64,000 bases of DNA from NCBI GenBank assembly GCA_019096195.1, contig JAGTXK010000108.1:62001-126000 (forward strand), read 5' to 3'. Positions within the stretch are counted from its first letter, which is position 1. Each line of letters starts with the position of its first letter. The position numbers and the translations under genes are program-made. The notes beneath the pieces were generated by a model, which was not told the DNA's origin, did no database searches, and saw only the letters and a program-made list of their open reading frames with translations. Positions 1 through 42,382 of this stretch are shown here, one piece after another. This DNA is from Boletus sp. NGJ. Its lineage: Eukaryota; Basidiomycota; Agaricomycetes; Boletales; Boletaceae.

Positions 1-1025
1 TGTGTCATGCCAGCGCAAGTATGATTTGCTAGTGGAAAATGCTTGCTCGATGGGATTGTAGTTGGAGGAGTATGGTGGCAAATAAATGAGTCTACACACT
101 AAAAACTAATCAGTAAGAATAACCCACCAGATTTTTACACTTATGATGCATATCTTCAACGAGCACTCAAACTTCTTCACCATGGTGGATACAACAATTA
201 TCCATGACAAGAACACTGTGTGAACCAGGGTATGGATTGGTAAAAGGCATCTGCAAGGAGTCAAACCATCAGTTGTGTTTGTCGATAGGAAAAAAAGTAC
301 ACTATACATACAACATGTTCCTGTGAAAACTGTAAAAAACGTGCACCATCAACTGGGCCTTCCATAATGTTGTATGCAATCACACCATCCAGTGTGATAA
401 CTGGGAGGATTGAGTAGTGTGCACCACATATGAAATATCGCCGGCCATGGCAATGCTGTCCCCTGAGTGATCGCCTGCATGGGTGAGAAGATGTACATCA
501 GTCTTTTGCAGCTTCATTCACAAAGAGAAGCATATTTGCATCTGGCACTTCTGCTGCAATACAATTCATGTAAATGGCATGCAACTTGTCATTCTGCTCA
601 GCAGCAGAGAAAGATATCATTTTTTGTATGAGCTGGAGGTGCTTTAGAGCATAGGAAAGAGTAGAGACCATTGCATATATGTTGTGCTTCTCCCACAACT
701 GGTGTTGGAGTTTGTCAAGATAAATTGTATTGTGATGTTGAACCACATTTTGAATAAATAAAATATTTGCTGTGCTGAGGATGTGATGGTGTCCGACAAT
801 GCAAGAGTATGTATGCAGGTTGTAGACAATGCTGAACCTTCTGTAGAAGTCAAGAGTCTTATATACAAGTGTTTTCTTGATGTCAAGAAGCCCACATATC
901 ACTTTTATGGTATAGCCATCAAGAGAAAGGGCAGGAATGTGTGTTTTGGTGTCATTGGGCACGGCATGGATTGGCATGGTGGGGCTAGTGATGGTTTGAG
1001 TCAGCACAGTATGTGACAGAGTCAT
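1..1025 (-). pseudogene. Tc1/mariner-like transposase, left-arm copy, cut by window edge
   Basis: This is the mirror copy of the transposase at 25959-27077. The reading frame begins at the ATG at 1025 and shows an N-terminal helix-turn-helix-like stretch ending in FVNEAAKD near 500. After that the frame is broken. The downstream parts are still recognisable between 106 and 480, including a DNCCIHH-like catalytic segment. The C-terminal NPIE block lies outside the window. The decayed frame means it cannot encode a working transposase. The assignment to the DDE_3 / Tc1-mariner group rests on the full-length copy in the right arm. Confidence 0.8.
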
Positions 1026-1044
1026 TTTGGCTTGGATGAGTTCA

Positions 1045-1116
1045 GGGTCCTACCCTGGTAGTTTCCGACAAGTTGAATTCTCAAATGTGTTTTCTACATT
1101 GCTTTGCAAATAGCTG
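1045..1116. repeat. 72-bp terminal inverted repeat of the Tc1-like transposon (left-arm copy)
   Basis: Mirror image of 25868-25939. It marks the transposon end next to the WD40 upstream sequence in this arm. The outer end reads CAGCTATTTGCAAAG on the minus strand and is preceded by a TA. Confidence 0.85.
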
Positions 1117-10016: not shown

Positions 10017-12420
10017 GTTCAATCATGGACAGGAACTCATACTGATGGTGCTAGGTGACATGAACTCAAGGAATTGTAGTCGATGACCACATATCCATGA
10101 TTTATCATCGTACCTATAGGTATTGCATTGAACGACCTGGATCAATGTGTCTCACCATGTGTACCTGAGAGAAAACATAACATCCATGTAGGAAACAAGA
10201 TTGAAAAGGTAGAGATGCCTGTTTCTTGTTGCTGCTGATCAACTGTAAGTCGGACAGTGGAGGTGAAAGGAAATTAACATGTACTGATAGATGGACCCCT
10301 GCAGCTGGGGGTTGAGATGGATCATTTGTTTGTTGTGCCTATTAGGATGTGAGCTATTGTGACGAGTTCCATGGTCACCAGAAAAAAACACACTTGGTTG
10401 GCTTTGTCTGTGCCTGCAGAATCTTGTCCACTGTGCGATGCATTCTTGCTTGGATGTTTTGGGACAGTAGTCTTCATGGGTGATTTATCCTGTAATATAT
10501 GATGAGCCTCTACATACAAACTCAAGACACAATGAACCTCCTCCTACAATGTTGCAACTGTTCGCTAGAATGACATGTTAGACACACCACATGCAACCAT
10601 CTTTAAGGAAGAGCACTCACTGGCCTGCATTGAGCTGCAGCCATCCACAAAGGTCCCTTCTTTTTTATGGCAATCACTTTCGCTGTGGAGTGGGAAGGAG
10701 ATTGACAATCAGCAGGCTTGCATGACTTTCCAGAATGTCGATCTGGCTTATGCAAAGCCAGGCCCTTGTTACCCACTTTCTGTAACCACTTTTTGAATAT
10801 TGAACGGCTTTGAGGTGTGTCAAGATTTTCCTGTGCATGAGCCACTGAAGGGGAGGAGGCCACTGGCAAGGCATCCGACAATTGTGATATGGCATGAGAT
10901 GAGCCAACAGGCTGTATCTCATCCTCCAGACACTCAGCAGACGAGACCAAGGACAGTGACTCCAGCAACATCAACATGGAAGCAAGAGGAGAATAAAGTG
11001 ATTGCCCACCTTGTCATTATAGTTAAATTGAGGACTGGGGGTGCTCAATGGCACCTCAACCTATACCATAATGAGAGTTGGCTCTGATGGAACAACAAAC
11101 AAGTTATTACCTTAAGAAGATCATTCCAATCATTGCTTTGATCCCCAGGCTTGGATGGACTAGACTTGCAGAGATCTTGCTATTGTGTATACCCTGAGGG
11201 AATCAGCACAACTCCTTTAGTGACAGAATGACAAACTCATACTAGATTGGAGGCTGATTTCTTGTTATCGTGACTGCCCAATGTTAGAGATTGCTCGTCT
11301 CGTTGTTCTTCCTCCTAAGTAGGTGCCTGTATAGTTGGGGATTATTTGACACACTGAGACTATAAAGCTACAGACACATACATGGAATGGGCCATACGAG
11401 TCCAGGAGAATCTTGCTGAGATCACGAATTATGATTTTCTGTCATCTCACCCAGTTGCAAGATAGCTACTGTCCACAGAGATGGAAATTGTATGTATCCC
11501 TTTGCCATCCTCAACAACAGGGCCAATGCAAGTCAGCGTCAATGTGTCCAGGAATAAAATGGAACACCTTGCAAAGGTAGTGATGAATTTGTTTTTGGTG
11601 GCTAAAGTAATAGAGGCAAAGTATATGTTGTCGCCATAGGAAATTTGTGATTTGGCAAGCAGGGACCCAGTAGAGACATCGAAAGACCTGACAAGTTTGC
11701 CATCCTCGGATGTCGCAAAAATCTGCTCAGGATCACTTGACCATGCAAGTGGAGAGGCCTGGGCCCATCTAGATAGATCAATCTTGATGGTGACACAGTT
11801 GTCACCGGTGTGAGTGTTGAAAATGCGCATGTAATAGAAACTGGCAGTGGTGACATGCTTGCCATTTGGGGAGAATTGGACACCAGTAACCCAATTGTTA
11901 TGTTTGAGTGGGCCAACAAGTTGCTTCCCGCTCATAATGCTCCAAACACTTGCATTGTGGTCAGGTGTTCCAGTTGTGGTGGCAAACCTGGTTGAATCAG
12001 AGGAAACATCAACCATATACACCACATTTTCGTCCTTCACATTGATGACTTTTTCTTCCATCTCTCTGTCCCACATGCTTTCCCCCTTTGAAGTCCCACA
12101 TACTGTCCATTTGTCATCATCTGACACAGAAATGGACAATACTTCCACATCCATTCCCATTTGCTCTCCAACCTGTTGACCATCTGCAAGTCACCATTGT
12201 CGAATTCCATCATCCCTGCTCAAAATATGTCTTCCATTGGAGTGGAACGTGACTGAGTTTAGATGGCGAGAGTGACCAGTGTCAAGTACTAATAGTGTTT
12301 GGTCTTACTGGATAGTTTAGCATTGCTCAATGGCTTCTCAGAGCTGTTACACACTGGTATTCATCAATGACATCATCACCAATGGTATACAAGGGTCGGT
12401 GGCAAGATGGCAAGGAGCAA
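10017..12420 (-). pseudogene. WD40-repeat gene, unit B
   Basis: The N-terminal propeller is open for 237 codons (12160-11447: GMDVEVLSISV, VDVSSDSTRFAT, WVTGVQFSPNG, PLAWSSD), then the frame shifts within blade 7. The 3' part retains the tail exon (10977-10603: FKKWLQKVGNKG, GKSCKPADCQSPSHS) and the last exon (10525-10322, DKSPMKTTVPK). The first blade near 12200-12300 is recognisable but out of frame. It has at least two frame disruptions plus CpG-type decay, so it is probably dead. Its downstream flank holds gypsy A and its upstream flank carries two copies of the conserved upstream module. Confidence 0.8.
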
Positions 12421-22918: not shown

Positions 22919-22934
22919 GGATCACAAGTGATCC
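22919..22934. repeat. 16-bp palindrome at inverted-duplication breakpoint
   Basis: GGATCACAAGTGATCC has 7-bp perfect arms around AA. The right arm of the inverted duplication begins inside its second half. Confidence 0.8.
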
Positions 22935-24485
22935 TATCTAATGTTCTCCTGATTCCTGAGTTCCAGATCTCCCTCATCTCTGTGAACTGACTTGCTTCTG
23001 CCAGCCTTTTCACCACCTTTCCAGCCAGTTCTGACATGTGCTATGTTTGGAAGCACTGGAACACCATACTTGCTACCACACAGAAAAATGGACTGTACCA
23101 TGCAAGAATTAATCCAAATGATCAGAAGGAAGCAGCACATGCCACAGTAGACATAAATCTTTCACACCAATGCATGGGCCATGTCTCTGCTCACTGCATT
23201 CAACATATGGTGAAATCTGGACAACTCCAAGGGATAGACACCCTAAGTGGTTCACCAACATTTTGTGAAGCATATGTCCTTGGAAAGATGAAGAAACTAC
23301 CCTTTGAACTTCAAGATGGATCTCACACCACTCACCCACTTGAAATGATCCGCACAGATGTTGGAGGCCCAATAACTCCAAGATCCCAGGAAGGTTATAG
23401 ATTTTGGATTGTCATCGTAGATGACTTTACCCATTTCCCTTGGATCTACTTCATGAAACGCAAAAATGAAGCACTTGGAATCTACAACCAGTGGAAAACA
23501 GATGTCCAAATACTCCTTCGCACTGAAATAGGACAAGAGGACTTCTCAGAATCCTATGTCAAGTTTGTCAGAAGTGATGGAGGAACCGAGTATGTCAATA
23601 TGGCATTCTGAAGTCAGTTCCGAACCGACAGAACACTTCATGAGACCTCAGCTCCATATACTCTGGAACAAAACAGATTAGTGGAACGGATGGATCAGAC
23701 CCTATGTACTCTTGCAAACACCATGCCAGAAGAATTAAACATTCAAAGTCTTTCTGGGCCAATGCAATGGCCACCGCTGCTTATGTTACTGCACAGAGCC
23801 CAACTTCTGGACTTGATGGAAAGATATCCTACCAAGTCTTTTTCAATCACCAAGTTGATCCCTCCTTCCAACCTTTTGGATGTCCAGCATATGCGTACAC
23901 CAAAGGAACAATGGGGAGGGAAATTCCAACCACATGGAAAGAAATGCATCATGATTAGATACACATATGGACAACAAGCCTACAAGCTCCTGAACATAGA
24001 ACGTTGAACTATCATCTCCAGTCGACATGTTACTTTTGATGAAACCAGAACCATCTCTGGAACTAAGTCAGCTCCATGGAATGGCCCTACTATTGAGGGA
24101 CAGTGGGAGGGCCTAATTCCAGAGCATCTTTGTCAACCAGAGGACAACAGTGGAGATGATGAAGACTACTGTCCATCCAATTCCAGACCAGTGGAAGAAG
24201 ATGTAGCTCCAGCAGATGTTCCTGAATGACCAGCAAGCCCCACTATACTAGAGCTTGCAGATCAATTTGAACAACTTCATCTAGATGCACTCCATCTCCC
24301 AGCTCCTCCAGCTATTCCAGCTGTTCCAATCCTCCCAGCTGCTCCAGTTCCTCCAGCTGTTCCAGCCCCTCCTATTCCTGCATCTATTCCTACTCATCCT
24401 GTTGCTCAACAAGCAGTTAATGTATGCAGAAGTAATTGACCACAATGACCAGCAAACAAGAACAAAGAATATCAATGTACTTTAT
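22930..24485 (+). mobile_element. Ty1/copia integrase region (right-arm copy, fossil)
   Basis: The integrase zinc and core regions span 23036-24007 (HQCMGHVSAHC, RTDVGGP, DDFTHFPWIYF, VRSDGGTEYVN). A Pro/Ala-rich linker repeat of LLQLFQ-coding type follows at 24285-24440. It starts at the duplication breakpoint, so gag and protease are absent. It ends at 24485 directly against CAACCTATATC of WD40 unit D. Broken. Confidence 0.88.
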
Positions 24486-25865
24486 CAACCTATATCATCA
24501 TAAGAGCTTGCTTTGAGGGGCAAATGAACAAACAGATACCTTGAGGAGATCACCATTGCCCTCTTTGCTCTGTTTCTTGGACTTAACTCGACTGGATTCT
24601 GTAGAATCTTCCTATTGTACATACACAATAATGGAGTCAGCACAACAATTCCAGTGATGGAATGATGAAATCCTACCAGGGTGGAACTAGGTACTTTGCT
24701 GTGGTCATCACCTGATGTCAAAGGCTGCTCATCTTGTTTTACTTCTTTGTGAGTAGATGCCTGAATAGTTTGTCAATGTAAAAGATGGAAACCGACCTAT
24801 TTGACATGCAAGTGGTTTGAAGGGACAAATGCTCACATTAAGTGGATGCCACAAATCTGGGATAATCTTTCCAAGATCACGAATGACAATTATCCCACTT
24901 TCACCTTTAGTTGCAAGGTGGGTACCATCCAATAAGATAGTGATCAACGATATCTTTTCACTGTCCTCAATAACAGAACCAATCAGAGCCAGTGTTGATA
25001 TGTCTAGGAATGAGATGGAATGGCCTGCAAAGGTAGCTATTAATTTGGTGGCTTGGGCAACACAGAAGATGTAGTTCCTGTCACCATTGGGAATCTGCAA
25101 TTTGGCAAGCTGGGACCCAGTGGATGTATTAAATGACCTGATTTTGTTGTGACTGGATGCAGCAAATATTTGCTGACTTGGCCATGCAAGTGGAGTGCCC
25201 AAAAAGTTGGGCATGTCAATTTTGATGGTGATGAGTTCATCACCACTGTGACTGTCAAAAATGTGGATGGAATTCTTCTTGCAGGTGGTGGCAAATTGTG
25301 TGCTATTTGGGGAGAATTGGACTCCAGTGACATTATTGACATGCTTAAGTGGGCTGATGAGTCTTTTCCCACTTGTAATGTCCCACATTGTCATGTTGTA
25401 GCCACTAGTCCCAGTGGCAAACCTTGTCAAATCTGGGAAGACATCAACCGCCCAGACCATGTTTTCACCCTTTACATTGATGACCTTTCTATGCATCTCT
25501 CCATCCCACATGTTTGTCCCCTTGTCAGTCCCATACACAATCCACTTCTGATCCCTTGACATGGAAATGGTGAACACTCTCATTCCTGTTTGCTTTCCGA
25601 CCTCTTCACTGTCTGAAAGTTGCCATCATTGAATCCCATCACTACTGCTGCCCAAAAGATGCTTTCCATCAGGGTGGAATATGACTGCCCAGACCTGTCC
25701 AGGGCCACCAGTGTCAAGGACTATCGTTTGATCTTATTGGATAGCAATGGCCCATCGGAGCTGCTATGCACTGGTATCCATCAATGACATTTTCACCAAT
25801 GGTGCACAATTGTTGGTGTCAAAATAGTAAGGATGAAGGTGTTTCAGTTTGCTCATGCTGTGCAT
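24486..25865 (-). pseudogene. WD40-repeat gene unit D, 5' half
   Basis: Reverse-strand twin of 1117-2498. A 284-codon open stretch (25583-24729) covers blades 2-7, with the same two introns. The first blade (VLDTGGPGQVWAV, near 25700) is separated by an in-frame TGA where paralogues have CGA. It starts exactly where unit D's 3' half at 17889 would continue. The upstream sequence is interrupted after TGCTGTGCAT by a TA and the Tc1-like transposon, so both ends of this gene have been hit by elements. Confidence 0.82.
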
Positions 25866-25867
25866 TA

Positions 25868-25939
25868 CAGCTATTTGCAAAGCAATGTAGAAAACACATT
25901 TGAGAATTCAACTTGTCGGAAACTGCCAGGGTAGGACCC
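25868..25939. repeat. Left terminal inverted repeat of Tc1-like transposon
   Basis: 72 bp beginning CAGCTATTTGCAAAG and ending GGTAGGACCC. It pairs with the reverse complement of 34747-34818. Confidence 0.88.
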
Positions 25940-25958
25940 TGAACTCATCCAAGCCAAA

Positions 25959-27077
25959 ATGACTCTGTCACATACTGTGCTGACTCAAACCATCACTAGC
26001 CCCACCATGCCAATCCATGCCGTGCCCAATGACACCAAAACACACATTCCTGCCCTTTCTCTTGATGGCTATACCATAAAAGTGATATGTGGGCTTCTTG
26101 ACATCAAGAAAACACTTGTATATAAGACTCTTGACTTCTACAGAAGGTTCAGCATTGTCTACAACCTGCATACATACTCTTGCATTGTCGGACACCATCA
26201 CATCCTCAGCACAGCAAATATTTTATTTATTCAAAATGTGGTTCAACATCACAATACAATTTATCTTGACAAACTCCAACACCAGTTGTGGGAGAAGCAC
26301 AACATATATGCAATGGTCTCTACTCTTTCCTATGCTCTAAAGCACCTCCAGCTCATACAAAAAATGATATCTTTCTCTGCTGCTGAGCAGAATGACAAGT
26401 TGCATGCCATTTACATGAATTGTATTGCAGCAGAAGTGCCAGATGCAAATAAGCTTCTCTTTGTGAATGAAGCTGCAAAAGACTGATGTACATCTTCTCA
26501 CCCATGCAGGCGATCACTCAGGGGACAGCATTGCCATGGCCGGCGATATTTCATATGTGGTGCACACTACTCAATCCTCCCAGTTATCACACTGGATGGT
26601 GTGATTGCATACAACATTATGGAAGGCCCAGTTGATGGTGCACGTTTTTTACAGTTTTCACAGGAACATGTTGTATGTATAGTGTACTTTTTTTCCTATC
26701 GACAAACACAACTGATGGTTTGACTCCTTGCAGATGCCTTTTACCAATCCATACCCTGGTTCACACAGTGTTCTTGTCATGGATAATTGTTGTATCCACC
26801 ACGGTGAAGAAGTTTGAGTGCTCGTTGAAGATATGCATCATAAGTGTAAAAATCTGGTGGGTTATTCTTACTGATTAGTTTTTAGTGTGTAGACTCATTT
26901 ATTTGCCACCATACTCCTCCAACTACAATCCCATCGAGCAAGCATTTTCCACTAGCAAATCATACTTGCGCTGGCATGACACAAATCCATCAATGATGGC
27001 TATCGTTCACACTTGTCAGAGTATCACCCCCAACAAGGTGGTAGATTATTTTCAAGCATCTGGATACATAGTGTAGT
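25959..27077 (+). pseudogene. Tc1/mariner (DDE_3-type) transposase, decayed
   Basis: Starts at the ATG 20 bp inside the TIR. The N-terminal half (175 codons) has a helix-turn-helix-like region (KVICGLLDIKKTLVYKTLDF), then FVNEAAKD, where a TGA interrupts. Catalytic blocks follow: ITLDG with the first Asp (~26590), VLVMDNCCIHH with the second Asp (~26780), and LPPYSSNYNPIEQAF with the Glu (~26930). It ends SGYIV and stop. A GT-AG intron (about 26671-26735) fits between EHV and MPFTNPYPG. A second TGA replaces an expected CGA after HHGEEV. The transposase cuts and pastes at TA. This copy is inactive as read. Confidence 0.82.
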
Positions 27078-27124
27078 ACTAGTCAATGTAACTAAGTACT
27101 ACTACTACCTTGTATGAAAAGTGG

Positions 27125-28640
27125 TTGAAATATGTGATTGTCCTCCTCCTCTTCACCAGTGTCTGCATCCTCAATGACAACAAAGCCCTTTGGAATGGGC
27201 AACCACTGATTCTACACATCACATTTGTAGTATAGATCATAATCAGCGCCTGACAGGGCCTGTATTGCCATCAGCTTGCATTGGTGGCCCCCAAAAGTGG
27301 CATCCACCACCATCATAGTATCACTTTTCATATGCAAACCTTTTCTTTGATGGCTGGCCTAACTTGTTGCCATGCTCAGTGCCTGACGATGTCAAGGTAT
27401 TGCTCTGCTTTTATTTGGCATCAGGGCCATTCCACCAAGCAATACTGCCTTTTTTGAGGCATATAATGTCACCCATTGAGAGACCAATGCCAGATAAAGT
27501 ATTGTTGTCGACATCTGTGAGAATATCTGGTCCAATACCTTGTAGTTCAAGTGGGTACCTGTATGTAGACATGTTGCACACACCAAGATGAGTTTCTACA
27601 TAACTAAGAAATCATGTGAGCTGAGATGGTGATGGACAAGGCAGGAAAATGGGCAGTCCAACTGGTTTGCACATTGGTGTCACTGGAGACACAGTAGGAA
27701 CTGCAACATTTGCATTGGTGGTAGTCAAGGGAGATGGAGATGTGGTAATAGACTGCAATAGACCAGAGTTCATAAGTGTCTGGAGAAGAAGCACCAACAT
27801 CAACAAGTTGACATCAATATCCAGTGTTGCTAGAGCAGGTGTCTTCACCTTTCATAACAGATGTAGAAATGGCGCTTTGTTGGTGAAATTGAATGACTTG
27901 ATGTTCAGCAGAGTGCTCAGCATGGCCTGCCCCTCCTCCTATGAGCTGGTTACTAGAATATTCTCACAATGAAAAAAAATGGCAATCTACCAGTGCACGA
28001 CACCAATCCAAGATCATCGCTGATGTTACAGCAATCATTCCCATTGGACCAACATATGTGAGCCCCTCATCAAAGCTATTCTTGTAATGGGTTTGAAGCT
28101 TAATATGCCAATGGGCAAGGTGCAATTCGAGATCAGAAGCTTCAAGCGACAGGCTCTATTGATGTTAGTACAGATTATATATTTTGGCAATACAATGAAC
28201 ATGTACTATATATGAACCTCACCAACATCTCCATCTGATTCATCCTTGACAGTGGCCAAGGTGGGGAGCTTCTCAACTTCCTTCATGTTGACAAGAATCT
28301 TGGTTACAGCAGGATTAGTACTGGCTCTGATTTTCTTCACCATTTCTTTGTAATCAGCTTTATGATTGACATCCATTGCATCACTGGAGCACTGGCTAAA
28401 TGAAGTTAACAGGTAGAACCAACCATTGAAGTCAAGCAATGAAAAAAATGAGAGACTTACCCTTTTGCCTTTGGCAGCACATACTTGAATGGAAACTGCA
28501 GTTTCTCTGATATCTTGTATTGATCTTGCCTGTGCTTGTCAAGTACACTTTGTAAAAAGTCGAGGTAGTTGCTGTCATTGATGGAAAATTGCAGTTCTTT
28601 GATTTTGATGGACTTCTCCATCAGTAAAAACAGAACTAAC
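27125..28640 (-). pseudogene. Companion gene of the Tc1-like transposon, SAM-like segment (function unknown)
   Basis: Minus-strand coding pieces run convergent to the transposase. They are a central block near 28620-28455 (DSNYLDFLQSVLDKH, FPFKYVLPKAKG), DYKEMVKKIRAS near 28350, a Pro/Thr-rich part with LMLVLLLQTLMNSGLL near 27800, a SAM-like block LQGIGPDILTDVDNN / GIGLSMGDIICLKKG near 27555-27450, and a C-terminal block YYKCDV...QWLPIPKGFVV near 27240-27180. Gaps fit short introns plus several stops. I recall proteins of this layout as common unknowns in Agaricomycetes. Co-residence inside the TIRs argues that it belongs to the transposon. A role in DNA or transposase binding is only a guess. 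Confidence 0.6.
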
Positions 28641-28659
28641 TGTCTGGTGCTGGACAGTA

Positions 28660-28850
28660 CTGGATAGTAACATAGTGCCCATAGTGAGGGTCCAACTGGA
28701 TAGTGGTTTGATAGTACTATGACAGTGTCTCATAGTCTGTTCATAGTCTGTCATAGTATTCTCAGTGTCTCATAGTATTCTCATAGTACTTTCATAGTGG
28801 TCATAGTATTCCCATAGTATCTCATAGTGTGGTCATAGTGATATTTCAAG
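28660..28850. repeat. TCATAGT-type simple repeat
   Basis: Irregular tandem copies of (T)CATAGT(GTC/ATT), the complement of the ACTATG repeat at 34397-34540. The transposon interior holds two parts of one satellite, split by the copia insertion. Confidence 0.8.
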
Positions 28851-28894
28851 CCAATTCTAATTTCAAATTCAATCAAATATTAATTCTACTAATT

Positions 28895-29025
28895 CTAATT
28901 CTAATTTTAATTTTAATTTTAATTTTAATCCTAATCCTAATCCTAATCCTAATCCTAATCCTAATCCTAATCCTAATCCCAGTCCCAGTCCCAGTCCCAG
29001 TCCCAATCCCAATCCTAATGATTTA
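28895..29025. repeat. Hexanucleotide satellite TAATTT / AATCCT / AGTCCC
   Basis: Successive runs of TAATTT, then CCTAAT (about ten copies), then CCCAGT hexamers. Each run differs from the next by transitions. It encodes only low-complexity peptides. It resembles but is not the fungal telomere repeat TTAGGG. Confidence 0.9.
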
Positions 29026-29179
29026 CAAAGTAAAGTGTTGACTTCATATAATGAGTAAAGAAGGATAAAATTAAGAAACAAGAGAGTGTGGGAAAGTTTT
29101 TGAAGTCTGGCTTGTTTATATAAGAATGGTGGCACAAACATTGGCAAACAATGTCCACTTTTTTAACACTGAGTGTGGG

Positions 29180-29440
29180 AAAATGGACTTGGATATTTTT
29201 TAAATGTAGGTCTACACTTTTGGTACACTTTGTGACTACACTTTTACTACACTTTTGGTACACTTTTGGTACACTTTGTTTGCTACACTGTACTACACTC
29301 TGCTACACTTTTGTTTGCTTTTTTTTACTACACTTTGTTTGCTACACTTTTGCTACACTCTTTGCTACACTTTTTGTACAACATTTGACTACACCTTTGA
29401 CTACACTTTTTGTATACTTTTGATTTAGGTTTAGGTTTAG
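29180..29440. repeat. CTACACTTTT simple repeat
   Basis: Imperfect copies of (C)TACACTTT(TG) in tandem, ending in GATTTAGGTTTAGG. No coding content. Confidence 0.85.
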
Positions 29441-29499
29441 GATTAGCTTAAAATTACTACTATAACTATGACTACTATGGATGTACTATGATCTATGAA

Positions 29500-29504
29500 A
29501 TGCT
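29500..29504. repeat. Target-site duplication ATGCT of nested copia (left)
   Basis: ATGCT immediately before the 5' LTR. The identical 5-mer is at 34392-34396. Confidence 0.9.
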
Positions 29505-29743
29505 TGTAGGATTTCTATACGATACAAATGGTAGTACACTGATTACATAATTATGTTGGACCGTAGTTGTTCTCTTTTCATACGCTACACACCTCAGTAA
29601 CTGTCTACTACAGTGACTGAGGTGAGCTACACTATTCATTAGCTACACTCTTACTAACATTACCTTAGTCCTACTGTGTTCAATAGGTAATGACCACCCA
29701 AGTAACTGTCTACTACAGTGATTGAGTCCTACTGTGTTCAATA
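29505..29743 (+). repeat. 5' LTR of nested copia
   Basis: TGTAGGATTTC to TTCAATA. Contains an internal duplication of CAGTAACTGTCTACTACAGTG-type sequence. Confidence 0.92.
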
Positions 29744-29758
29744 GGTTATGAGCCCTGG
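29744..29758 (+). other. Primer-binding site, half-tRNA type
   Basis: GGTTATGAGCCCTGG directly follows the LTR. GGGCTCATAACC, its complement, matches the anticodon arm (CAT) of initiator tRNA-Met. That is the internal site Drosophila copia and yeast Ty5 are known to use. The other copia family here has the same motif at 5267-5279. Confidence 0.75.
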
Positions 29759-32700
29759 CTCGAAAGCCTGAGTAGACCAAAAGTAGAAATCCAACTTGAA
29801 GACCTGAAACGATTTTAAACTTCCCAAACTCGATGCCGCTGGAAAAGAATGGACCTCTTGGAAATTCCAACTCACTTGCACACTCCAAACGCAAGACCTG
29901 AACAGTTACCTTGACAGAACCAAAAGTCTACCAATGGACCTGTCACTCAGCAAATCTCAAATGTGGAAACCAACCACAGCAGACAAGAAACTTGAAGCCA
30001 AGAAGTACAAGACAGACATGATTGAATGGCGAAAGAAGAATGCTACAGCCTGTCACATTATCCTGACCACACTCCCTAATACTCTCTGCATGCGTCTCAT
30101 GCAGAAGAAAACTGCACAAGAGTTCTACAAAGCCTTGGCAGTGATGTTTGAAAAGTGGTCGCTGGTCATAGGTACTAAGCTGAGATGGCAACTCAATGAG
30201 GTGAAGCTGAAGGAAGGCGGTGATGCACGCGCACACATAAACAAAATCCTAGTGTTGCATGAAGAACTCGCCACCATTGGAAATCCTGACTCAAAACAAG
30301 ACCTTTTCGGCATCATCTGTGCATCCTTACCTCGCTCGTACAACTCCATCCTATCCTCCATCTCATCAACCATAAAACTCAATAATACAACTATCTCATC
30401 TGACACCCTTCTTGACCTCGTCACTGATGAATACAACTGCCTCGCCCTACAAGACTCTGGCAAGTCGAAAGCGAAACCATCCAATGATGCTGCATTCAAT
30501 GCCGACTCGTCCAAAAAGGGAAAGGGCAAGAAGCACGAGCGCTACACTGGTGAATGTGGCAATTGCAGTTGGACGGGTCATCAAGACAAAGACTGCTGGG
30601 AGGAAGGAGGAGGCAAGGAAGGCCAAGCCCCAAAGAGTTGGAAGTTGTGGGGAAAGAAGTTGAAAGATTCACAGAACGGCAAGGGGAAGTCATCACCAAA
30701 GGTGAACACCGGTGTATGGCTCGCAGAAATATCTGAGTCTGAAACACATGACAACGAACTATCCTTACCATTCCTGAGCTATGCAATGCTCGTACATGAT
30801 GGTACCACACCATCGAGTGAAGTCACTGAACTGTATGACAGTGGTGCATCACAGCACATGTCACCAGCTCACAATCACTTCATCGACTTCAAGACTATCC
30901 CACCCAAACCAATACGGTCAGCTGACAATCGCACATTCAATGCAATTGGAAAAGGGAACCTTCATATCTACTTACCCAACGGTGAATGGAAGTCCCACAT
31001 CCTCTTGAAGGATGTCTTATATGCGCCGTCCATGAAGGTCACCCTTGTCTCGATCAGCCGACTCGCCAGCACAAACTATGCTGCCTTGTTCCATGATAAG
31101 TCTCTTCGAATCTTCAACTCGAAAAAGTGCATGTTTGGTGAAGTACCACTCGAAAACAGCCTCTATAGAACCCGCAATCAATACCCTACCCCATTTGCAG
31201 GTGTCGTAAAAACCGATGAAATACTCACCATGGAGGAATTGCACATCCGACTATCCCATATCGGCGCACCCACCATTCGCGAAATGCTAGCCAAAGGCAT
31301 GATTACCAGTGTGAAACTACACCCGGACCATACCTCTATGGGCCAATGTGAAGCATGCGAGTATGGAAAAGTGACACAGAAACCTATAGGGAAGGATCGT
31401 GACCCAAAACGTAGTGATAACTTCAGTGACGAAATACACACCGACCTGTGGGGACCGTCACCAATGCAAATGCCATCAAAGAAGATCTACTACTGCTTGT
31501 TCACAGATGATCACACATGTTACACCCACCTGTACCTTTTAACGGCCAAGTCCGAAACGTTCAAAGCATACTGCCAATATGAGGCTTGGGCAAAAAACCA
31601 GCACAACACCGACATTAAACGGTTGAGGTCGGATCATGGGGGGGAGTACCTGAGCGACGAGTTTACTCATCATTTGAAAGCCAAGGGTACAGAGTGAAAA
31701 CTCACCACTCACGATACCCCACAACACAACGGTGTCGCAGAACGCCTAAACCGAACCTTGATCGAACAGGTACATGTGGTCTTACATGCTAGTGGACTGC
31801 CTAAAACGCTGTGGGGCGAGGCTATCTTGCATACCCTCTGGGTAAAGAATAGGTCAGCGACACAAGCACTCGACAGCAAAACACCATATAAGATGCTGCA
31901 TAACAAGAAGCCAAACATAGGAAACTTACCTGTGTGGGGAGGACACTGCTGGGTACACGACGTGAACGGCTCGAAGCTTGACGTGTGAGTGTGCAAGGGC
32001 CACTGGGTTGGGTACGATCCCGACAGTGGAGCCCATCGCATTTATCTTGCAGACCGCCACACCGTTTCAGTTGAGCACAACATGACGTTTCAACGCCATG
32101 ACAACGCTGCCACCAGCCCTGTTGGCATCACAAGCGAAAGGGAGAATGAGCAGGCAAACAAAAATCATCAGCCAACCGCTCGAGACACACAGGAAATGAA
32201 CATACCTAAAGCCCCAGAAATCCCTCCAGTCCCAGACGCACCACACAACAACCACCTAAGTGCCAACTTCGAGATACCAGCACCTCAAAACAAGCTGAGA
32301 CGTTCGAGCCGAAAGCGAACGGAATCACCCTACCTACAAGCACTGTGCAACCAGCTTGGTACCCACGATGGACAAACAGGTGGCCCACCCTTTCCTTGAG
32401 GTATCCAAGCTGTCCAGAGTAGGAGTGAGAAAGAAAGGAGTGGAGGTGCAAGCGACGACCGCAGTGAGAACAGCGATATCGATAACTCCATCAATAACAG
32501 TGCAGCCATGGGTGCATGGGAATTCGACGACAATAGAGCGGCATACGCCATGGTAACCGGAGTCACCAATATGGAAGCATTGGAGCCAGCGATGATAGCA
32601 GAAGCACAAAGGAGACCAGATTGGGCGAAGTGGGATGAAGCAATAAATGCCAAGTTGAAGAGCCTTGACAATGCGCACACCTGGGACGTTGTCGAACAAC

Positions 32701-34152
32701 CTGCAAAGTCAAACGTAGTCAGCTGCAAATGGGTCTTCAAAATAAAGAAGAATGCAGCCAGCGAAGTTGACAAGTACAAGGCACGCCTAGTAGCGCGCGG
32801 TTTCACACAGCAACTCAGTGTCAACTACGATGAAACATACGCACCTGTCACATGGCTCTCATCTATCCGTCTCATCCTCGCGATCACAGCTCGTCAAGAC
32901 TGGGACATCAATGTCTTCGACTTCCACAGCGCTTTCCTCAACGGGAAATTAGATGACGATGAAATAATCTACATTGAACTACCACCCAGATTCAACAAAC
33001 ACGGCTGCAACCTTGTCGCCAAGCTCTGTGTCGCCCTCTACAGATCTAAACAAGGCGCTCTTAAATGGTATCTACGACTATTGAAGGAGTTAGCCGAATT
33101 AGGGTTCAGGTGGATGGAAGCTGACTGGGGAATATTTGTTGCGCTCACTGGCACACACATTTTAATCTTAGCATCTCATGTAGATGACTGTATGATCACA
33201 GGGAGCTCGAAGGAACTCATCAAAGCCTTCAAAGCCGAAATCAGCTTGCACTTTCATATCACAGATCTAGGACCCATCAGTTGGCTCCTAGAGATGAAGA
33301 TCACACGAGATCGACGTGCACGGACCATCTCCCTTTCCCAAGAACCGTACATCAATGCCATCCTCGCAAAGTTCAACTTTGTCAATGCAAAGCCAGTCGC
33401 AACTCCCCTCAACCCCAACCTTCACCTATCAGAATCACAAGGCCCTCAGATGACGAGTGAAATTGCCAAAATGCGCAACATCCCATACTGCCAGGCAATG
33501 GGATCACTAATCTACCTAGTAGCTGGCATGTGACCTGACATTGCATTCGCAACATCATACGTTTGCCAATTCAACGCCAACCCCAGATTGGCCCACTGGG
33601 AGGCTGTCAAATGAATCTATTGCTACCTCCTTGGTACAAAAACCTGGATGCTCACATTTGGTACTCAGACCTGTGGCCTTGTTGGCTATGTGGATGCAGA
33701 CGGTGCCTCACAGGAACACCGACATGCCATCACCGGATTTGCCTTCCTTGTCGATGGAGGAGCAATTTTGTGGGGTTCGAAGAAACAAGAACTCATTACC
33801 CTCTCCACTGCTGAGTCCAAGTATGTCGCAGCCACACACACAGCCAAGGAAGCCATCTGGCTTTGCTGTCTCATCAGCGAGATCTTCAGACCACTCCAGC
33901 AACCCACCATTCTGTATGGTGACAATCAGTCAGTGATTGCACTGACAAAGGACAGTAGTTTTCACGCATGCACTAAACATATTGATATATGATACCATTT
34001 CATTTGTTTCACTGTCGAACAAGGTCACATTCATTTTCTATACTGCCCTACTAATAACATGATTGCAGATACTCTTACTAAGGCACTTTCAAGTGTTAAA
34101 GCGAAACATTTTGCCTTCAAACTTGGCCTACGCCCTTCTGTTTGAGGGGGAG

Positions 34153-34391
34153 TGTAGGATTTCTATACGATACAAATGGTAGTACACTGATTACATAATT
34201 ATGTTGGACCATAGTTGTTCTCTTTCTGTACACTACACACCTCAGTAACTGTCTACTACAGTGACTGTGGTGAGCTACACTATTCATTAGCTACACTCTT
34301 ACTAACATTACCTTAGTCCTACTGTGTTCAATAGGTAATGACCACCTAAGTAACTGTCTACTACAGTGACTGAGTCCTACTGTATTCAATA
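34153..34391 (+). repeat. 3' LTR of nested copia
   Basis: Matches 29505-29743 with about 9 differences in 239 bp, and is preceded by the polypurine tract. Confidence 0.92.
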
Positions 34392-34540
34392 ATGCTATGG
34401 TACTATGATACTATGATACTATGCACACTATGAATATACTATGGATACTATGAATACACTTTCAATACTATGATACTATGAATACTATGAGTTATCTATG
34501 AAACTACTATGGCACTATGAGCACTATGATGAAATCCTGT
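34392..34540. repeat. TSD ATGCT and ACTATG simple repeat
   Basis: ATGCT (34392-34396) is followed by imperfect copies of (AT)ACTATG. The same repeat precedes the 5' LTR (29450-29500), so the copia entered a satellite. Confidence 0.85.
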
Positions 34541-34690
34541 ATTTACTGATGTCTTCCTTTGATGTCAACACTTTGCCCTTAATAGATGCCTTCTTCTTGA
34601 GGAGGGAAATAGACAGTAAGGGAGATTGTAAATACATGGAGTTCCTCAGATTCACAGGCTGGTGATGGCAGCAGCATAGTGGATACAGTA
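34540..34690 (-). pseudogene. Possible N-terminal exon of the companion gene
   Basis: On the minus strand a stretch ESEELHVFTISLTVYF followed in another frame by KKKASIKGKVLTSKED resembles the start of the companion protein family as I remember it. It is on the same strand as 28640-27125 and would be separated from it by the ACTATG satellite and the nested copia. Weak evidence. Confidence 0.35.
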
Positions 34691-34746
34691 CAGGTCACAG
34701 TCAGTCACAAGTAGCTAATTGTGCACACGTAGGCTAGGCACAACTG

Positions 34747-34818
34747 GGGTCCTACTCTGGCAGTTTCTGACGAGTCAAACTCTCAAATATGTTTTCCGCA
34801 TTGCTTTGCAAATGGCTG
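34747..34818. repeat. Right terminal inverted repeat of Tc1-like transposon
   Basis: GGGTCCTACTCTGGCAG to CATTTGCAAAG's complement. It matches 25868-25939 inverted and is bordered by TA at 34819-34820. Confidence 0.88.
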
Positions 34819-34820
34819 TA

Positions 34821-35410
34821 ACAATGTTGTTCCATAAATAAGCCTTATTGTTCACACAGTTCTTTGGCACTTATCCTTCCTCACATCCTACATGGTCTGG
34901 TGGCAATGACTGGGAGGTGTCAATTTTTCGGCAAAACATGCCCTCCTTGCCATGTGTAGTCTTACCCTGACACTTGCGAATGTTCGTCACATCTTGCCTG
35001 CAGGACTCGGTTTTCACGACAAGTGGACAACTCACATTGAATGAACTCACGACATACTGCCCATAAAATCCGAGTAAAAGGCACGGTCAAACTGTAGTCA
35101 AACATGCATCTGCACACCCACTCACACCACATTCACATATGTGTGCAGGCTGGCTGTTCTCATGCTTCCTCTGTGTCTCTCCGGAGCTCGAGCGGTTGCA
35201 CCCGACCCTAGCAATACCCTCGGACGTTTAACCATGCGGTACCTTCAGGCCTGATCATTCCACTCTGGACACATCTTTGGATGATTCCGAGCTCAGGGAG
35301 GATCATGGGGTTGATATCCTGTCCCGAAAATTTAGTTGAAAATGGGCAATAACACACCGGGTCAACAGGATTCGCGCATGTTTCGATGCTGGGCATCAGA
35401 ACTCAGTCAA
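34821..35410 (-). promoter_or_regulatory. Detached upstream region of WD40 unit D
   Basis: Collinear with the upstream sequences of units B, E and F: CAATGTTGTTCCATAA, GGCACTTATCC, TACCCTGACACTTGC, TAAAAGGCACGGTC, then CACATATGTGTG and CCGGAGCTCGAG. It is cut from its gene by the transposon insertion at 34820. The far end (35260-35410) also matches 45510-45700. That block has an open frame in E reading LDDSESGEVDEIEYP, which may be an old exon of unknown identity. Confidence 0.6.
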
Positions 35411-36700: not shown

Positions 36701-39700
36701 CCCCTCTACCCAACCTTACCTCCATTTCATCCTGCCTTTCGTCGACAAAGCTCTTGTGCTAACAACGACTGTCTATGCCCCCACCCTTCTACCATCATGA
36801 ACCAGAACGACTTATCCTTCTCAGCCTGTAGAGACCCTGGTTCTATGGAATCATCCCAATGTCTCCACCTCCCAATCTGTTCAAATGGAACTTGAACAGG
36901 AACCCCTTGTCTCTCCACCCTCCCAATTGTTCCAACTTGCCACCTCCCAACCCACTTTCAATGCTGTCTATCGAGAGTGGTACAACAACTACCGATGAAA
37001 CCCTACCTTGGCAGGCCCCCCCCCCTATCCCATTTGCGCAACCCGACGATGCAACTGAATTTCAACCAGAACCTCAGGCACCACTGCACGTTCCCCATCC
37101 ATGAACTCTGCTGCCTCATGTCAACCTTCCTACTGATGCCCACTCAAAGGGTATCAGCAAATTGCTTGCTGCCAAACCTGAGTTCTACGACAGCAGCAAA
37201 GAGAAATATGTACAGTGGTGGCGTACGGTCAAACTCTATCTCGCCGGGTTCAAAATCAAACCGACTAACCGACAAAAATCCTTATCATTCTCTCATACAT
37301 GAAAGGTAACAATGCAGCCAGTAGATTTGCAGACCTTTATGTCACCCAGGGTTTGCTTGACTCATCGGATTTCAACGACTTCTCCACCAAACTCCAACAC
37401 TCTTTCCGCCCTGTGGCTCTTCAGCACACTGTGGAAAAGAAACTACTCTCGTTGCGACAGGAGAAAGAGACCATCGAGGATTTCATCATACGAATGAAAC
37501 ACCTTATCATTGAAGCCAATTATAATGTCTTCACCCATGCACGACTCCTCATCAACATCCTTCGGAATGGGGTTCATAACAAAGTGGTCGAATATGTAGA
37601 GCGTTCACAACCAGAGCTCCTCGACTCCCACATATTCACCCGCTGGAAATCTGCCCTCATCAAAGCTGATCAAGTTCTTATGGAAATTGCCGAGCGTAAA
37701 CGTGGCATCCATTCCTCCTTCACCTCAAAGGGCTTCCCTACCACTAGCACTAGTAAGACAATGAACCCCCTACCAACAACTTCGACCTCAGCCCCACCTA
37801 AGGTTGATGTCCACCCAAACCAATCCGGAACATTCAGTGGTCAGGGAGTCCCCATGGATATCAGCAAGGCTCGTGCGGAGGGTAAATGTTTCAAGTGTGG
37901 CAGAGTGTGGCCATGCACAGAACATTCTTGCCCCCGTCGACAGATGCGTTTCATCGAATTCAAAGGAGCCAAGATTTTCTATCAAGGCACAGAGGAGCTA
38001 GCAGATGCAATGAAGATCATTGAGAAAAATGAACAGGGTTTTGGAAGCGGGGTTTAGTTAGTGGTCGAACTACAACCCTGTCCTATACATCATCGAATCG
38101 TTTTTCCCTTCTCAACATCGATGAGATCGCCCAAACTGTGGATGAGGAGACTACTGAAGTTCACCCTCCCGAAACCTCTCTGCCCCCTTGCACAACTGCT
38201 CACTCTGAAGACTCCATTAAATCCTGCACGCCTCCTACTCTACCCCCCTCTCTCACAGAGGTTACTCCTCAGATCACCATCCTTCGTCGATCTGTGGACA
38301 CTTCCACTCCCCCCATGTCTGTGGAATCAGTAGAACCCCCTCCAGTCACAGAAATACCCACCGTACGAGACCGTGTCCAAATGTTGACCAAACGATGTAC
38401 TTCAGGTAATGGTAAGATGTCGTGGGCTAATACAATCGACCCTTGGTCCATTTGGTGGATCAAGTCCGTCGTTGACACCAAAACTGAAGATCGCGCTCTT
38501 TCTCACCTCCGCTCCTTCGTTCATGACTCTCATGTGTCAGAGGTCGACTCCACTCTTGTTACTGACCTTCAATCACTCTCCAACAATGACGTTCACTGAG
38601 TCCTCCGTGACCTTCAAAGTCGTCCCTGATTCATCCACCGTGCTACTTCCACGGCCAACTCTCTCAAACTTCCTGTCTCACTCACCACCAGTGACTCTCG
38701 TGAATTTGTTGTTAAGGCACTCATCGACTCTGGTTGCATGGGTTCCTCTATCAACCGAGTGTTCATCCTCAAAAAGAGAATGAATACTCACAAGCTTCCC
38801 CGCCCTATCCTGGTCTATAATGCTGACGGAACTCACAACTCGGCCGGCAACATCGAAGAGTTTGTCATCATCGAACTGAGGATCCAAGATCATTCCGAAC
38901 AAATTGCATTAGCTGTTACGAACCTCGGAACCAATACCATTTTCCTTGGTCATGATTGGTTGAAGTTACACAACCCAGACATCGATTGGAAACAGGGGAG
39001 AGTCACATTTCGATGTCAAGACGACCATGTCCCAGGTCCAATCAATGGAGACAATGACAACGAAGGCGAAGATATATGCTTTCAGGATGGTGATTGGCTG
39101 TTCCAGTTGAATGCCGAAACCTATATCCAAAATGTTTCTACTGATATCGCGGCAGTGGCCAATCAGCAAAAGGCAAAAAGGACCTTCAAAGAAGCTGTCC
39201 CCTGTCATTACCACGACTATGAGGATGTGTTCGCGAAAGAGAATTTCAACGAACTTCCCCCACAACGACCCTGGGATCATGCCATAGAGTTACTGCCTGG
39301 CGACCATGTCATTGACTGCAAAACGTACAACCTCTCGCCCGATGAACAGAAAGAGTTAGATGTCTTCCTCGAAGAGAACTTACAGTCCGGGTGTATTCAG
39401 CCTTCTAAATCCCCTTTTGCGTCTGCTTTCTTTTTCATGAAAAAAAAAAAATGGAGGACTACGTCCAGTATACGATTATCGCAAATTGAACGCCATCACG
39501 ATCAAAAACCGTTATCCCCTCCCTCTAATTTCCGAACTCATTGACAAACTAAAAACAGCTAAGTATTTTACCAAACTTGATATCCATTGGGAATACAATA
39601 ATGTCCATTTAGTTGAGGGCGACGAATGGAAGGCCGCATTCTGGACGAATCGAGGGTTGTTCGAACCTCTCGTCATGTTCTTTGGCTTGCCGAACTCCCC

Positions 39701-42382
39701 AGCGACCTTTCAAACCATGATGAATCACCTATTTCGTGATTTGATCAATCAGGGGAAGGTAATCATCTACATGGATGACATTATGATCTTTTCGCCTACC
39801 CTTGAAGAACATTAAGTCATCGTCCGTGAAGTTCTCCAAATTCTCCACGAGAACAAACTGTACCTTAAATATGAGAAGTGCGAGTTCGAAACCCTCAAAA
39901 CCGAATACCTCGGCCTGGTTGTCTCGCAACACACGGTCAAAATGGACCCTGCCAAAGTTGCCGCTGTTACAGATTGGCCCACATCCACATCCAAGAAAGA
40001 TCTACGTGGTTTTCTGGGCTTCCTCAACTTTTATTGTCATTTCGTCAAGGGTTTTGCACAGATCGCCCACCCTCTCAATGCACTTACATCCATCAAAAAG
40101 GATTTCGTTTGGGACAATGCTTGTCAGGCTGCCTTCATCCAACTCAAAGATGTTCTCTCCACAGCCTCCACCCTCACCATGCTGACTGATTGCGATCCAT
40201 AACATGTCAAAACTGATGGCTCTGGTGTTGGTCTTGGTGCTGTACTCTCTCAATGCCATGACAATGTCTGGCGTCCCATCACTTTCATCTCCCGCTCTCT
40301 CAATGATGCCAAATGTAACTATCATGCAGCTGACCTTGAAATGCTTGCAATCATGTTCGCCCTTAAAGAGTGGTGTCACTACCTCCTCGGCTCTCACCAC
40401 CCATTTGAAATCCTGACTGACCATAAAAACCTGGCATTCTTCCAAAAGCCTCAGGACCTCTCCCGTCGTCAGGCACATTGGCAACAAATCCTCCAGGAAT
40501 ATGATTTTGCCATCTCGCATCGCCCTGGGAAGTCGAATCCTGCTGTCCCTCTGTCCCGGAGGCCAGATTATATGAACAGGGTGATGTCAGACAATTCACA
40601 GCAAACCCTCCTCCCAGCTCACCTTTTCGACACATCACGAATGGTGGCCATACGCGCCAGGACGTCTACCCTCCCCACAGTTAGTTCGAACGATGCAACC
40701 GAAGCTGGCACTCCGATCCACCCTGACTCCATCGAAACTGCCATACATAAAAATCAGTATAAACAAGAACGATATGTAAAGGTAGGTCTCACCCGAGACG
40801 GGTCGCCGTGGAGCGAACGAAGTGGCATAGTTTATTGGAAGGAGCTCCTTTATGTCCCACGCAATCAGGCGATCTGAGAACGCATCTTACAAGAACATCA
40901 CGACCACCCGCTCGCAGGACATCCAGGAATCCGATGCACTCGAGACCTCGTCATGAACAAGTATTATTGGCCCAGTCTCAGAAAAGACATCGAGAAATAT
41001 GTCAAAGGTTGCGACCGCTGTCAGAAGACCAAATCGAAGACCGTATCTGGACGTACCCCACTACATCCCAATACTACTCCTTCCGCCCCATGGGAGGAGA
41101 TTTCTATCGACATCATCGGACCACTCCCAGAGTCTAATGGGAAGAACGCCATCCTCAATGTCGTCGACCGCTTTTCCAAGATGATTCATGTTTTTCCCGT
41201 GCAAGACACCATCACCGCCCTCGGAGTAGCCAAGATCTATCGCGATCATGTCTTCAAATTACATGGGATACCAAAGAAGGTCATCTCCGATCGAGGGTCA
41301 CAATTCGTTTCCTCATTTATGAAAGACCTATACACGCTGCTCAAAATCGAGGCAAACCCATCCACCGCCTATCACCCCCAAACAGATGGACAGACGGAGC
41401 GTCTGAACGCGGAGGTCGAGCAATACCTACGGATCTACACCAATCACAGACAAACAGATTGGACCGAATGGCTGCCCGTCGCCGAGTTCGCTCACAATCA
41501 AAAAACCTCTTCGGCGACAGGATATTCTCCCTTCTTACTCAATTATGGGCATCAACCTCTCATGGGGATAGAACGACGGAAGGAAGTACGAAACGAATCC
41601 GCACAAGATTTTGTCCAACAGATGAAACGAACCCAAGAAGAGGCCCGCGTGGCGTTGGAACATGCCGCAAACGACATGAAGCGTTTTCACGATCGACACG
41701 CACGCGATCGCCGATACTATCGTCCAGGAGATCTAGTGTTACTGGAAGCTACTAACATTCGCTCAGATCGACCCTCTCGCAAGTTAGACGACAAACGATA
41801 CGGGCCATTTAAAGTTATTGAAAAGGTCGGTGCGAGCGCATACAAACTAAAGTTGGATAGGTCGTGGAGGGGTATTCATCCCGTCTTCAATGAGTGTGTC
41901 CTGTGGCCGTATACCCCAGGAGAATTCCCGTCTCAGAAGAAGCCTCCCCCGCCGCCGCCCGTTCTCGTCAATCAGGCCGACGAACAAGAAATCGAGTCCA
42001 TCGTCGATTCCCGCGAACGTCGTGGTCACATCGAGTATCTCGTGCATTGGAAAGGCTTCCCTCGTGAAGAACGCGAATGGAAGAAGGACAACGAACTGGC
42101 CAATGCCTCTGACGCTGTAACCCTATTTCATCGACTCCACCCGACCGCACCTCGTCCTCTTCCTGTCATGAAACTGCGTCATAGCACCGACGACTCTGCC
42201 GCGGACTCTCCTTGTAATTGTCCCATCTGTCGCAAGATCCCCCCCATTTCCCCTTCTCCCTTGTTCCTTACAGACGACTTCAAGTCCTTCAGGTCTAGTT
42301 TAAATCATCTCCCCGACTTTCTGTTCGAATTCCCTCCAAGTCCATCTGTTGTCGCGGACGCCAACTCTTGAAAGGAGGATGA

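What the first reader, a model, noticed from the sequence alone, without database searches (positions are those of the whole stretch)
25868..34818. Two-gene Tc1/mariner-like transposon carrying a SAM-like companion gene
The TIRs, TA duplications and rejoining flanks define an element of ~4.06 kb once the nested copia is set aside. That is two to three times a usual Tc1/mariner. Besides the transposase it holds a convergent gene with a SAM-like block (LQGIGPDILTDVDNN) and a C-terminal QWLPIPKG block. Seen: both lie inside the TIRs. Known: SAM domains mediate protein or RNA binding. Inferred: the companion is a transposon accessory, such as a targeting or regulatory factor. I recall its relatives as uncharacterised proteins common in Agaricomycetes.
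Basis: partly seen in the sequence, partly recalled or inferred. Interest (0 to 1): 0.75.

Follow-up and report, generated by a model that had tools for sequence, protein, structure and literature searches.

The report
Two-gene Tc1/mariner transposon lineage
A kind of jumping gene that normally carries a single gene here carries a second, conserved one that has evolved alongside the jumping enzyme in many copies across what appears to be a fungal genome, which suggests that the second gene helps the element.

Summary
The element is real, but its size is corrected. TIRs, TA duplications and the nested copia are confirmed. A second nested insertion (1,041 bp, TC duplicated) splits the companion's first exon. 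Without both, the element is about 3.0 kb, not 4.06; the C77 copy (L012) shows this form. The companion (four exons) nearly fills the space left by the three-exon, DD34E-type transposase.

In this genome 29 of 31 companion loci lie convergent to a transposase, 25 of them 82-280 bp away (random placement: 0.02). TIRs enclose both genes in six of nine other elements examined. Distances of the two proteins correlate (Mantel r = 0.94, 12 elements), and both show codon-position constraint. The companion is best read as an old, selected part of this Tc1/mariner lineage. Its C-terminal half holds a SAM-like block (Sla1 SHD2, profile E = 2.6e-4), though Pfam finds no SAM domain.

Against: 22 of 51 transposase loci lack a companion. 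Nine are deletion derivatives, thirteen others, of which C126, C50, C35 and C91 are close relatives.

Function is not shown; I favour a SAM-based scaffold or targeting factor. Other fungi could not be searched, so the recalled spread through Agaricomycetes is untested.

The parts
25868..25939 (+). left terminal inverted repeat (TA at 25866-25867)
34747..34818 (-). right terminal inverted repeat (TA at 34819-34820)
25959..27076 (+). Tc1/mariner-type transposase gene, three exons (about 25959-26672, 26734-26843, 26893-27076; splice sites by inspection), broken by stops
   Evidence: (same layout in L009)
27092..34677 (-). companion gene, convergent, four exons (about 34677-34554 plus 28618-28461, 28395-28223, 28155-27991, 27938-27092; splice sites by inspection); interrupted in exon 1 by the nested insertions; stops and a frameshift
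   Evidence: (same layout in L009, L012)
27414..27611 (-). SAM-like block of the companion (66 aa without a stop)
27185..27208 (-). C-terminal QWLPIPKG block of the companion
28619..34551 (.). nested insertion in companion exon 1: a 1,041-bp TIR element (28619-29504 + 34397-34551), TC at 28617-28618 / 34552-34553, itself carrying the copia
29505..34391 (+). nested copia-type retroelement (observed only), LTRs 29505-29743 and 34153-34391, duplication ATGCT at 29500-29504 / 34392-34396
1..1116 (-). left part of a second copy of the element (the rest lies outside the window on C71), within an inverted segmental duplication; that copy has no copia

Best explanation
This is a decayed copy of a two-gene Tc1/mariner-type DNA transposon, about 3.0 kb when uninterrupted: 72-bp TIRs, TA target duplication (in a TTAA context at most ends), a DD34E-type transposase and a convergent companion gene of roughly 460-490 codons. 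Shown in this genome: the pair recurs across diverged elements in one fixed layout, the two proteins co-diverge, and both are constrained. Best-supported inference: the pair is the old gene content of a whole lineage. Further inference (about 0.4): the companion is an accessory protein acting with the transposase in trans; it would self-associate through its SAM-like block to scaffold transposase/TIR complexes or tether them to chromatin, while the transposase does the cutting and joining. Short derivatives that keep only fragments of both genes appear to have been moved in trans. The confidence given is for the two-gene element with an element-encoded, selected companion, not for the scaffold role.
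For: 29 of 31 companion loci have a convergent transposase hit; 25 of the 29 hit-to-hit distances are 82-280 bp, the rest -15 (C113, transposase N-terminal part only), 714, 1,109 and 1,206 bp. Random placement: mean 0.02, maximum 1 in 200 trials. TIRs enclose both genes in six of nine elements examined: C3 (101 bp, 98%), C22a (91 bp, 86%), C21 (104 bp, 78%), C79 (103 bp, 87%), C122 (88 bp, 84%), C22b, each starting TTACAG. All seven exon pieces in the same order in six of 21 stretches searched (C3, C22a, C38b, C21, L009, L012), partial in most others. Mantel r = 0.938, p = 0.0001, 12 elements, 66 pairs. Among six diverged elements, codon positions 1/2/3 differ 0.27-0.32 / 0.14-0.27 / 0.48-0.56 in companion exons, like the transposase; the exon-4 linker is far less constrained (0.46/0.40/0.60). 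DDE_3 E = 5.9e-25 (C3); 34 residues between second and third catalytic positions. SAM-like match E = 2.6e-4. Deletion derivatives that share a junction at different sites.
Against: The companion's function is untested. Pfam finds no SAM domain and the single-sequence fold failed (pLDDT 44). 22 of 51 transposase loci have no companion: nine are deletion derivatives of the window family; thirteen are others, of which eight hold the last exon. Four of those eight are close relatives (C126, C50, C35, C91). In C50, C35 and C126 the 1.5 kb downstream holds no companion; C91 was not read. C50 and C35 are 99.9% identical over 3.3 kb, so count once. Three of nine elements gave no full TIR pair (C38b, C92, C85). 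Many copies carry stops. Correlated distances are expected for any two genes in one element, so they show co-inheritance, not interaction. Some loci are duplicates (the C71 pair; the C79 pair and C59/C127 judged only from like scores), so 29 is not 29 independent events.
Confidence: 0.85

Rival explanations
1. The companion is element-encoded but regulatory: a repressor of its own element, or an anti-silencing factor that counters the host's cytosine methylation, rather than a scaffold of transposition.
For: The window family shows strong CpG loss (observed/expected 0.18 in the window core, 0.63 in the whole window; 44 of 84 transition columns in the first 360 bp of nine copies lie at CpG), so it seems to live under methylation or a similar mutational process. 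SAM domains occur in chromatin repressors (recalled).
Against: No domain typical of such factors was recognised; nothing here tells regulation from assembly.
Confidence: 0.35
2. The companion is a passenger captured from the host, without a role for the element.
For: DNA transposons sometimes carry captured genes (recalled).
Against: 29 of 31 companion loci lie with this kind of transposase; the two co-diverge and are similarly constrained. No clear host version was seen: of the two unpaired loci, C126:54234 is a fragment with two stops and C44:253304 lies beside another copy.
Confidence: 0.06
3. The pair is an accident: two unrelated neighbouring genes, or the companion belongs to a nested insertion.
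For: The window copy carries nested insertions inside the companion, and the ATG at 28621-28619 lies in one of them.
Against: The C77 copy, without these insertions, has both genes between a full left TIR and an incomplete right TIR; the layout recurs in diverged elements with TIR pairs.
Confidence: 0.01

Closest known systems
[quoted passage not shown]
   Same: DDE_3 transposase with DD34E spacing, TIRs, TA duplication; profile match to Sleeping Beauty, E = 1.2e-4
   Different: Tc1 elements are described with ~30-bp TIRs (some far longer), one ORF and a mean length of ~1,300 bp (PMC7325037, passages read); here TIRs of about 72-104 bp, two genes, 3.0-3.2 kb
Ciliate TBE and Tec elements
   Same: Tc1/mariner-type elements with a DD34E transposase plus further ORFs (PMC7325037, passages read); all three TBE genes under purifying selection (PMC4724952, abstract)
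   Different: Three ORFs; the others are a zinc-finger protein and a small ORF (TBE), or include a site-specific recombinase (Tec). Here one partner, SAM-like, with no such Pfam match
PIF/Harbinger-type two-protein transposons
   Same: A DDE transposase and a separate accessory protein in one element (recalled; PMC4482050 seen only as a search listing)
   Different: Another transposase superfamily and a Myb-like partner (recalled)
MarorTcMar-18 of Marasmius oreades
   Same: A mushroom Mariner-type family of 3,972 bp with a newly inserted 1,120-bp relative lacking protein domains (PMC9674265, passages read): a similar long/short pattern
   Different: Gene content not given in the passages read; relationship untested
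Sla1 SHD2 (a SAM domain)
   Same: Best PDB match of the companion profile, E = 2.6e-4 over 55 residues; hhalign probability 95.8% over 53 columns
   Different: A yeast actin-regulating protein; only the domain is comparable

Membership tests
Tc1/mariner superfamily | DDE_3-type catalytic domain with DD34E/D spacing | tested here: met
   PF13358 E = 5.9e-25, above cut-off, for the C3 relative read through two stops; D149, D234, E269 in A3, 34 residues between the last two. The window copy reads Asn at the first position; some other rows also depart at single positions
Tc1/mariner superfamily | TIRs and TA target-site duplication | tested here: met
   most ends read TTACAG, others one-base variants; no empty target site was available
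Tc1/mariner superfamily | N-terminal helix-turn-helix DNA-binding domain | tested here: inconclusive
   HTH_23 E = 0.032, below cut-off, in the window; none listed for C3
Tc1/mariner superfamily | Position in a reference phylogeny | not tested
   No reference set at hand; PDB only (one match, Sleeping Beauty, E = 1.2e-4)
Single-gene Tc1 element | One ORF, ~1.3 kb | tested here: not met
   Two genes, about 3.0 kb
Ciliate TBE/Tec | Three ORFs with zinc-finger protein or recombinase | tested here: not met
   Two genes seen; no such Pfam match in the C3 companion, A1 members or A2 members
SAM domain | Pfam SAM-family match at the curated threshold | tested here: not met
SAM domain | Profile similarity to a solved SAM structure | tested here: met
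   3idw (Sla1 SHD2) first, E = 2.6e-4; next match CFAP221, E = 0.012; hhalign 95.8%. That 3idw is a SAM fold is recalled
SAM domain | Five-helix fold | tested here: inconclusive
   single-sequence model pLDDT 44, strands only, not interpretable

The most novel reading that the evidence does not exclude
A distinct branch of Tc1/mariner transposons, probably fungal, has become an obligate two-component system, in which a self-associating SAM-type protein encoded by the element is required with the transposase for assembly or targeting. That would be a dependence not described outside ciliates in the passages I read, in a superfamily known for needing little but its transposase.
Probability: 0.35. 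Interest if true: 0.8.

Novelty: new variant of a known kind. Interest (0 to 1): 0.62.

Why it matters
Tc1/mariner elements are the textbook minimal transposons: one gene, no element-encoded helper (recalled; single ORF per PMC7325037 passages). A lineage that has kept a second protein across strongly diverged elements points to an unknown step (assembly, targeting, silencing) that this protein serves, and offers a defined pair to test. It would also give an identity to proteins that annotation probably leaves as hypothetical.

Tried and rejected
Folding the 66-aa SAM-like stretch of the window alone: pLDDT 44, uninformative. A PB1-like fold for the N-terminal part (my own idea): no PDB support (best E = 0.086, a cytochrome P450, read as chance); Pfam gave isolated weak hits only, the best AvrM-A, E = 6.4e-4, in one of 10 members, read as chance. 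Exon 3 and head of exon 4: no PDB match up to E = 1. Companion relatives in viral and prokaryote contigs: none confirmed (33 and 15 pattern matches, none encoding a relative). Literature: ten searches (two returned nothing); judged by titles and abstract starts, no listed paper describes a two-gene Tc1/mariner with a SAM-like companion in fungi. Only open-licence papers are held, and a study of fungal cut-and-paste transposons that I asked for is not. TIR pairs not found in C38b (C38:11300-15100) and C85, only a left TIR in C92. Dropped: that the companion belongs to a nested insertion.
Full report
Names: C22a = C22:1736000-1739800, C22b = C22:2263350-2267693, C38b = C38:11300-15100, C71b = L009.

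Anatomy of the window copy. Inverted repeats 25865-25939 and 34747-34821 are 87% complementary over 75 nt; TA flanks both ends. The copia at 29505-34391 has a 5-bp duplication. The related copy on C77 (L012; 90.7% over 2,754 bp) runs straight from window position 28618 to 34552. The difference, 1,041 bp with its own TIRs and a TC duplication, is a second nested element. 25 other places match about its first 42 bases (which scored 40 of 111 candidates, so a lower bound); the 14 looked at begin with the same TIR or a one-base variant. The uninterrupted element is thus about 3,016 bp. In C77 the companion's frame continues through this join towards the right TIR, so in the window the insertion splits its first exon. 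Both window genes are broken.

Copies of the same family. The first 201 bases match 21 places. Twelve loci were compared. L009 is an inverted segmental duplicate of the window copy (99.3% over 3,651 bp; window 1-4054 equals 26983-22931 at 99.8%) without the copia; its outer right TIR is missing. C77 has both genes, a full left TIR and an incomplete right one. C44 is partial, as is C107. Nine are internally deleted: C56, two on C22, C118, C65, C141, C38, C31, C104. They span 0.73-1.04 kb, except C118 (8.6 kb, with an insert); C104 is cut by a contig end. They keep about 360 bp or more of the left side, and 52 bp or more of the companion's first exon followed by the right end. Three junctions occur at different genomic sites (C56 and C22; C65 and C118; C141 and C38): of eight loci compared, only the two C22 copies have like flanks (C104 left out). 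These derivatives encode neither whole gene and were most simply moved in trans (inferred).

Genome-wide association. The C-terminal 165 residues of the C77 companion match 39 places, the first 175 residues of the transposase 59, its last 60 residues 38; the middle of the transposase was not searched. Clustering gives 31 companion loci, 36 loci with the last transposase exon and 51 transposase loci in all. The first script paired 28 of 31 because clustering merged hits at C114:489885-494239; a recount on single hits gives 29 of 31, 25 of them at 82-280 bp between hits. Exceptions: C126:54234 and C44:253304. Of the 36 last-exon loci 28 have a companion. Of all 51 transposase loci 22 have none: the nine deletion derivatives, and thirteen others (C126, C50, C35, C91, C82, C97, C23, C89, C129:547215, C44:390969, C65:426918, C22:1742919, C71:17820). 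Uniform random placement gives 0.02 pairs on average, at most 1, in 200 trials. C50 and C35 are 99.9% identical over 3,327 bp and carry a left TIR of the lineage's kind; no companion lies in the 1.5 kb downstream in C50, C35 or C126. They may be truncated copies or a companion-free offshoot; I cannot tell.

TIR test. Nine divergent elements were examined: C3, C22a, C38b, C21, C79, C122, C22b, C92, C85. Six have an inverted pair enclosing both genes: C3 (3,173 bp), C22a (3,050), C21 (4,113, with 1.2 kb between the genes), C79 (3,074), C122 (3,174), C22b (about 3.1 kb between TIR motifs; the repeat detected there spans 3,148). C92 shows a left TIR only; C38b and C85 none in the stretch read. The twelve ends of the six all read TTACAG.

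Gene structure and selection. All seven exon pieces (transposase three, companion four), in the same order, were found in six of 21 stretches: C3, C22a, C38b, C21, L009, L012; most others are partial or cut, and L071-L073 (C50, C35, C126) have no companion. Protein distances of transposase and companion over 12 elements correlate at r = 0.938 (p = 0.0001, 66 pairs); this set includes the close groups C3/C38b/C92/C22b and C77/C71b. Among six diverged elements (C3, C22a, C21, C122, C77, C85; codons with stops dropped) third positions differ most in all six exons tabulated, and second least in all but the last transposase exon; the second transposase exon was not tabulated. The exon-4 linker, an internal control, is far less constrained. 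The four companion exon pieces of C3 have no stop, its transposase has two. CpG observed/expected is 0.18 in the window core, 0.16 in C77, 0.53 in C3, 0.63 in the whole window; 84 of 89 variable columns among nine copies are transitions, 44 of them at CpG.

What the proteins are. The C3 transposase, exons joined, matches DDE_3 (E = 5.9e-25) with DD34E spacing; the profile's only PDB match up to E = 0.1 is Sleeping Beauty (1.2e-4). The companion's last part, as a profile of 11 sequences, finds Sla1 SHD2 first (E = 2.6e-4), aligned over 53 columns by hhalign (95.8%); with one C3 sequence alone nothing relevant was found. Pfam finds no SAM domain in the window piece, in C3, or in any of the 11 members. 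So SAM-like is fair, SAM is not proven. The N-terminal and middle parts match nothing convincing.

Meaning. Tc1 elements are described as single-ORF elements of about 1.3 kb; the multi-ORF elements named in the passages I read are ciliate TBE and Tec (PMC7325037). A mushroom Mariner-type family of 3,972 bp with a newly inserted 1,120-bp relative has been reported (PMC9674265, passages read); its gene content is not given there, but the sizes fit. The best reading is an old two-gene branch of Tc1/mariner. What the companion does is inference: assembly or targeting scaffold (about 0.4), or regulation/anti-silencing (about 0.35).

Noticed in passing
1-4054 and 22931-26983: Inverted segmental duplication, 99.8% identical, carrying part of the element; the two C71 copies are therefore not independent insertions.
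   Followed up: yes
28619-29504 and 34397-34551: A 1,041-bp TIR element (CATCAGTAAAAACAG, TC duplicated) rich in simple repeats; 25 other places in the genome match its end. A similar stretch seems to follow the transposase of C50 (my reading).
   Followed up: partly
25868-28618: Strong CpG loss of the element (observed/expected 0.18 against 0.63 for the window); 84 of 89 variable columns among nine copies are transitions: points to methylation-linked or RIP-like decay.
   Followed up: partly
37269-42371: ORFs with retroelement gag, protease, and integrase with a chromodomain: an LTR retroelement of the chromodomain kind near the finding.
   Followed up: no
1359-2255, 11447-12190, 24729-25625, 50764-51801: WD40-repeat ORFs (three tested; 24729-25625 lies in the duplicate of 1359-2255), with inverted DNA similarity between several such stretches: a local WD40 gene family.
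   Followed up: no
3373-3993: A further copia-type fragment (gag pre-integrase and integrase core matches), repeated at 22991-23611 by the duplication.
   Followed up: no
L071 and L072 (C50 and C35), whole: Two contigs carry a 3.3-kb stretch 99.9% identical including flanks: recent duplication or two haplotypes in the assembly.
   Followed up: no
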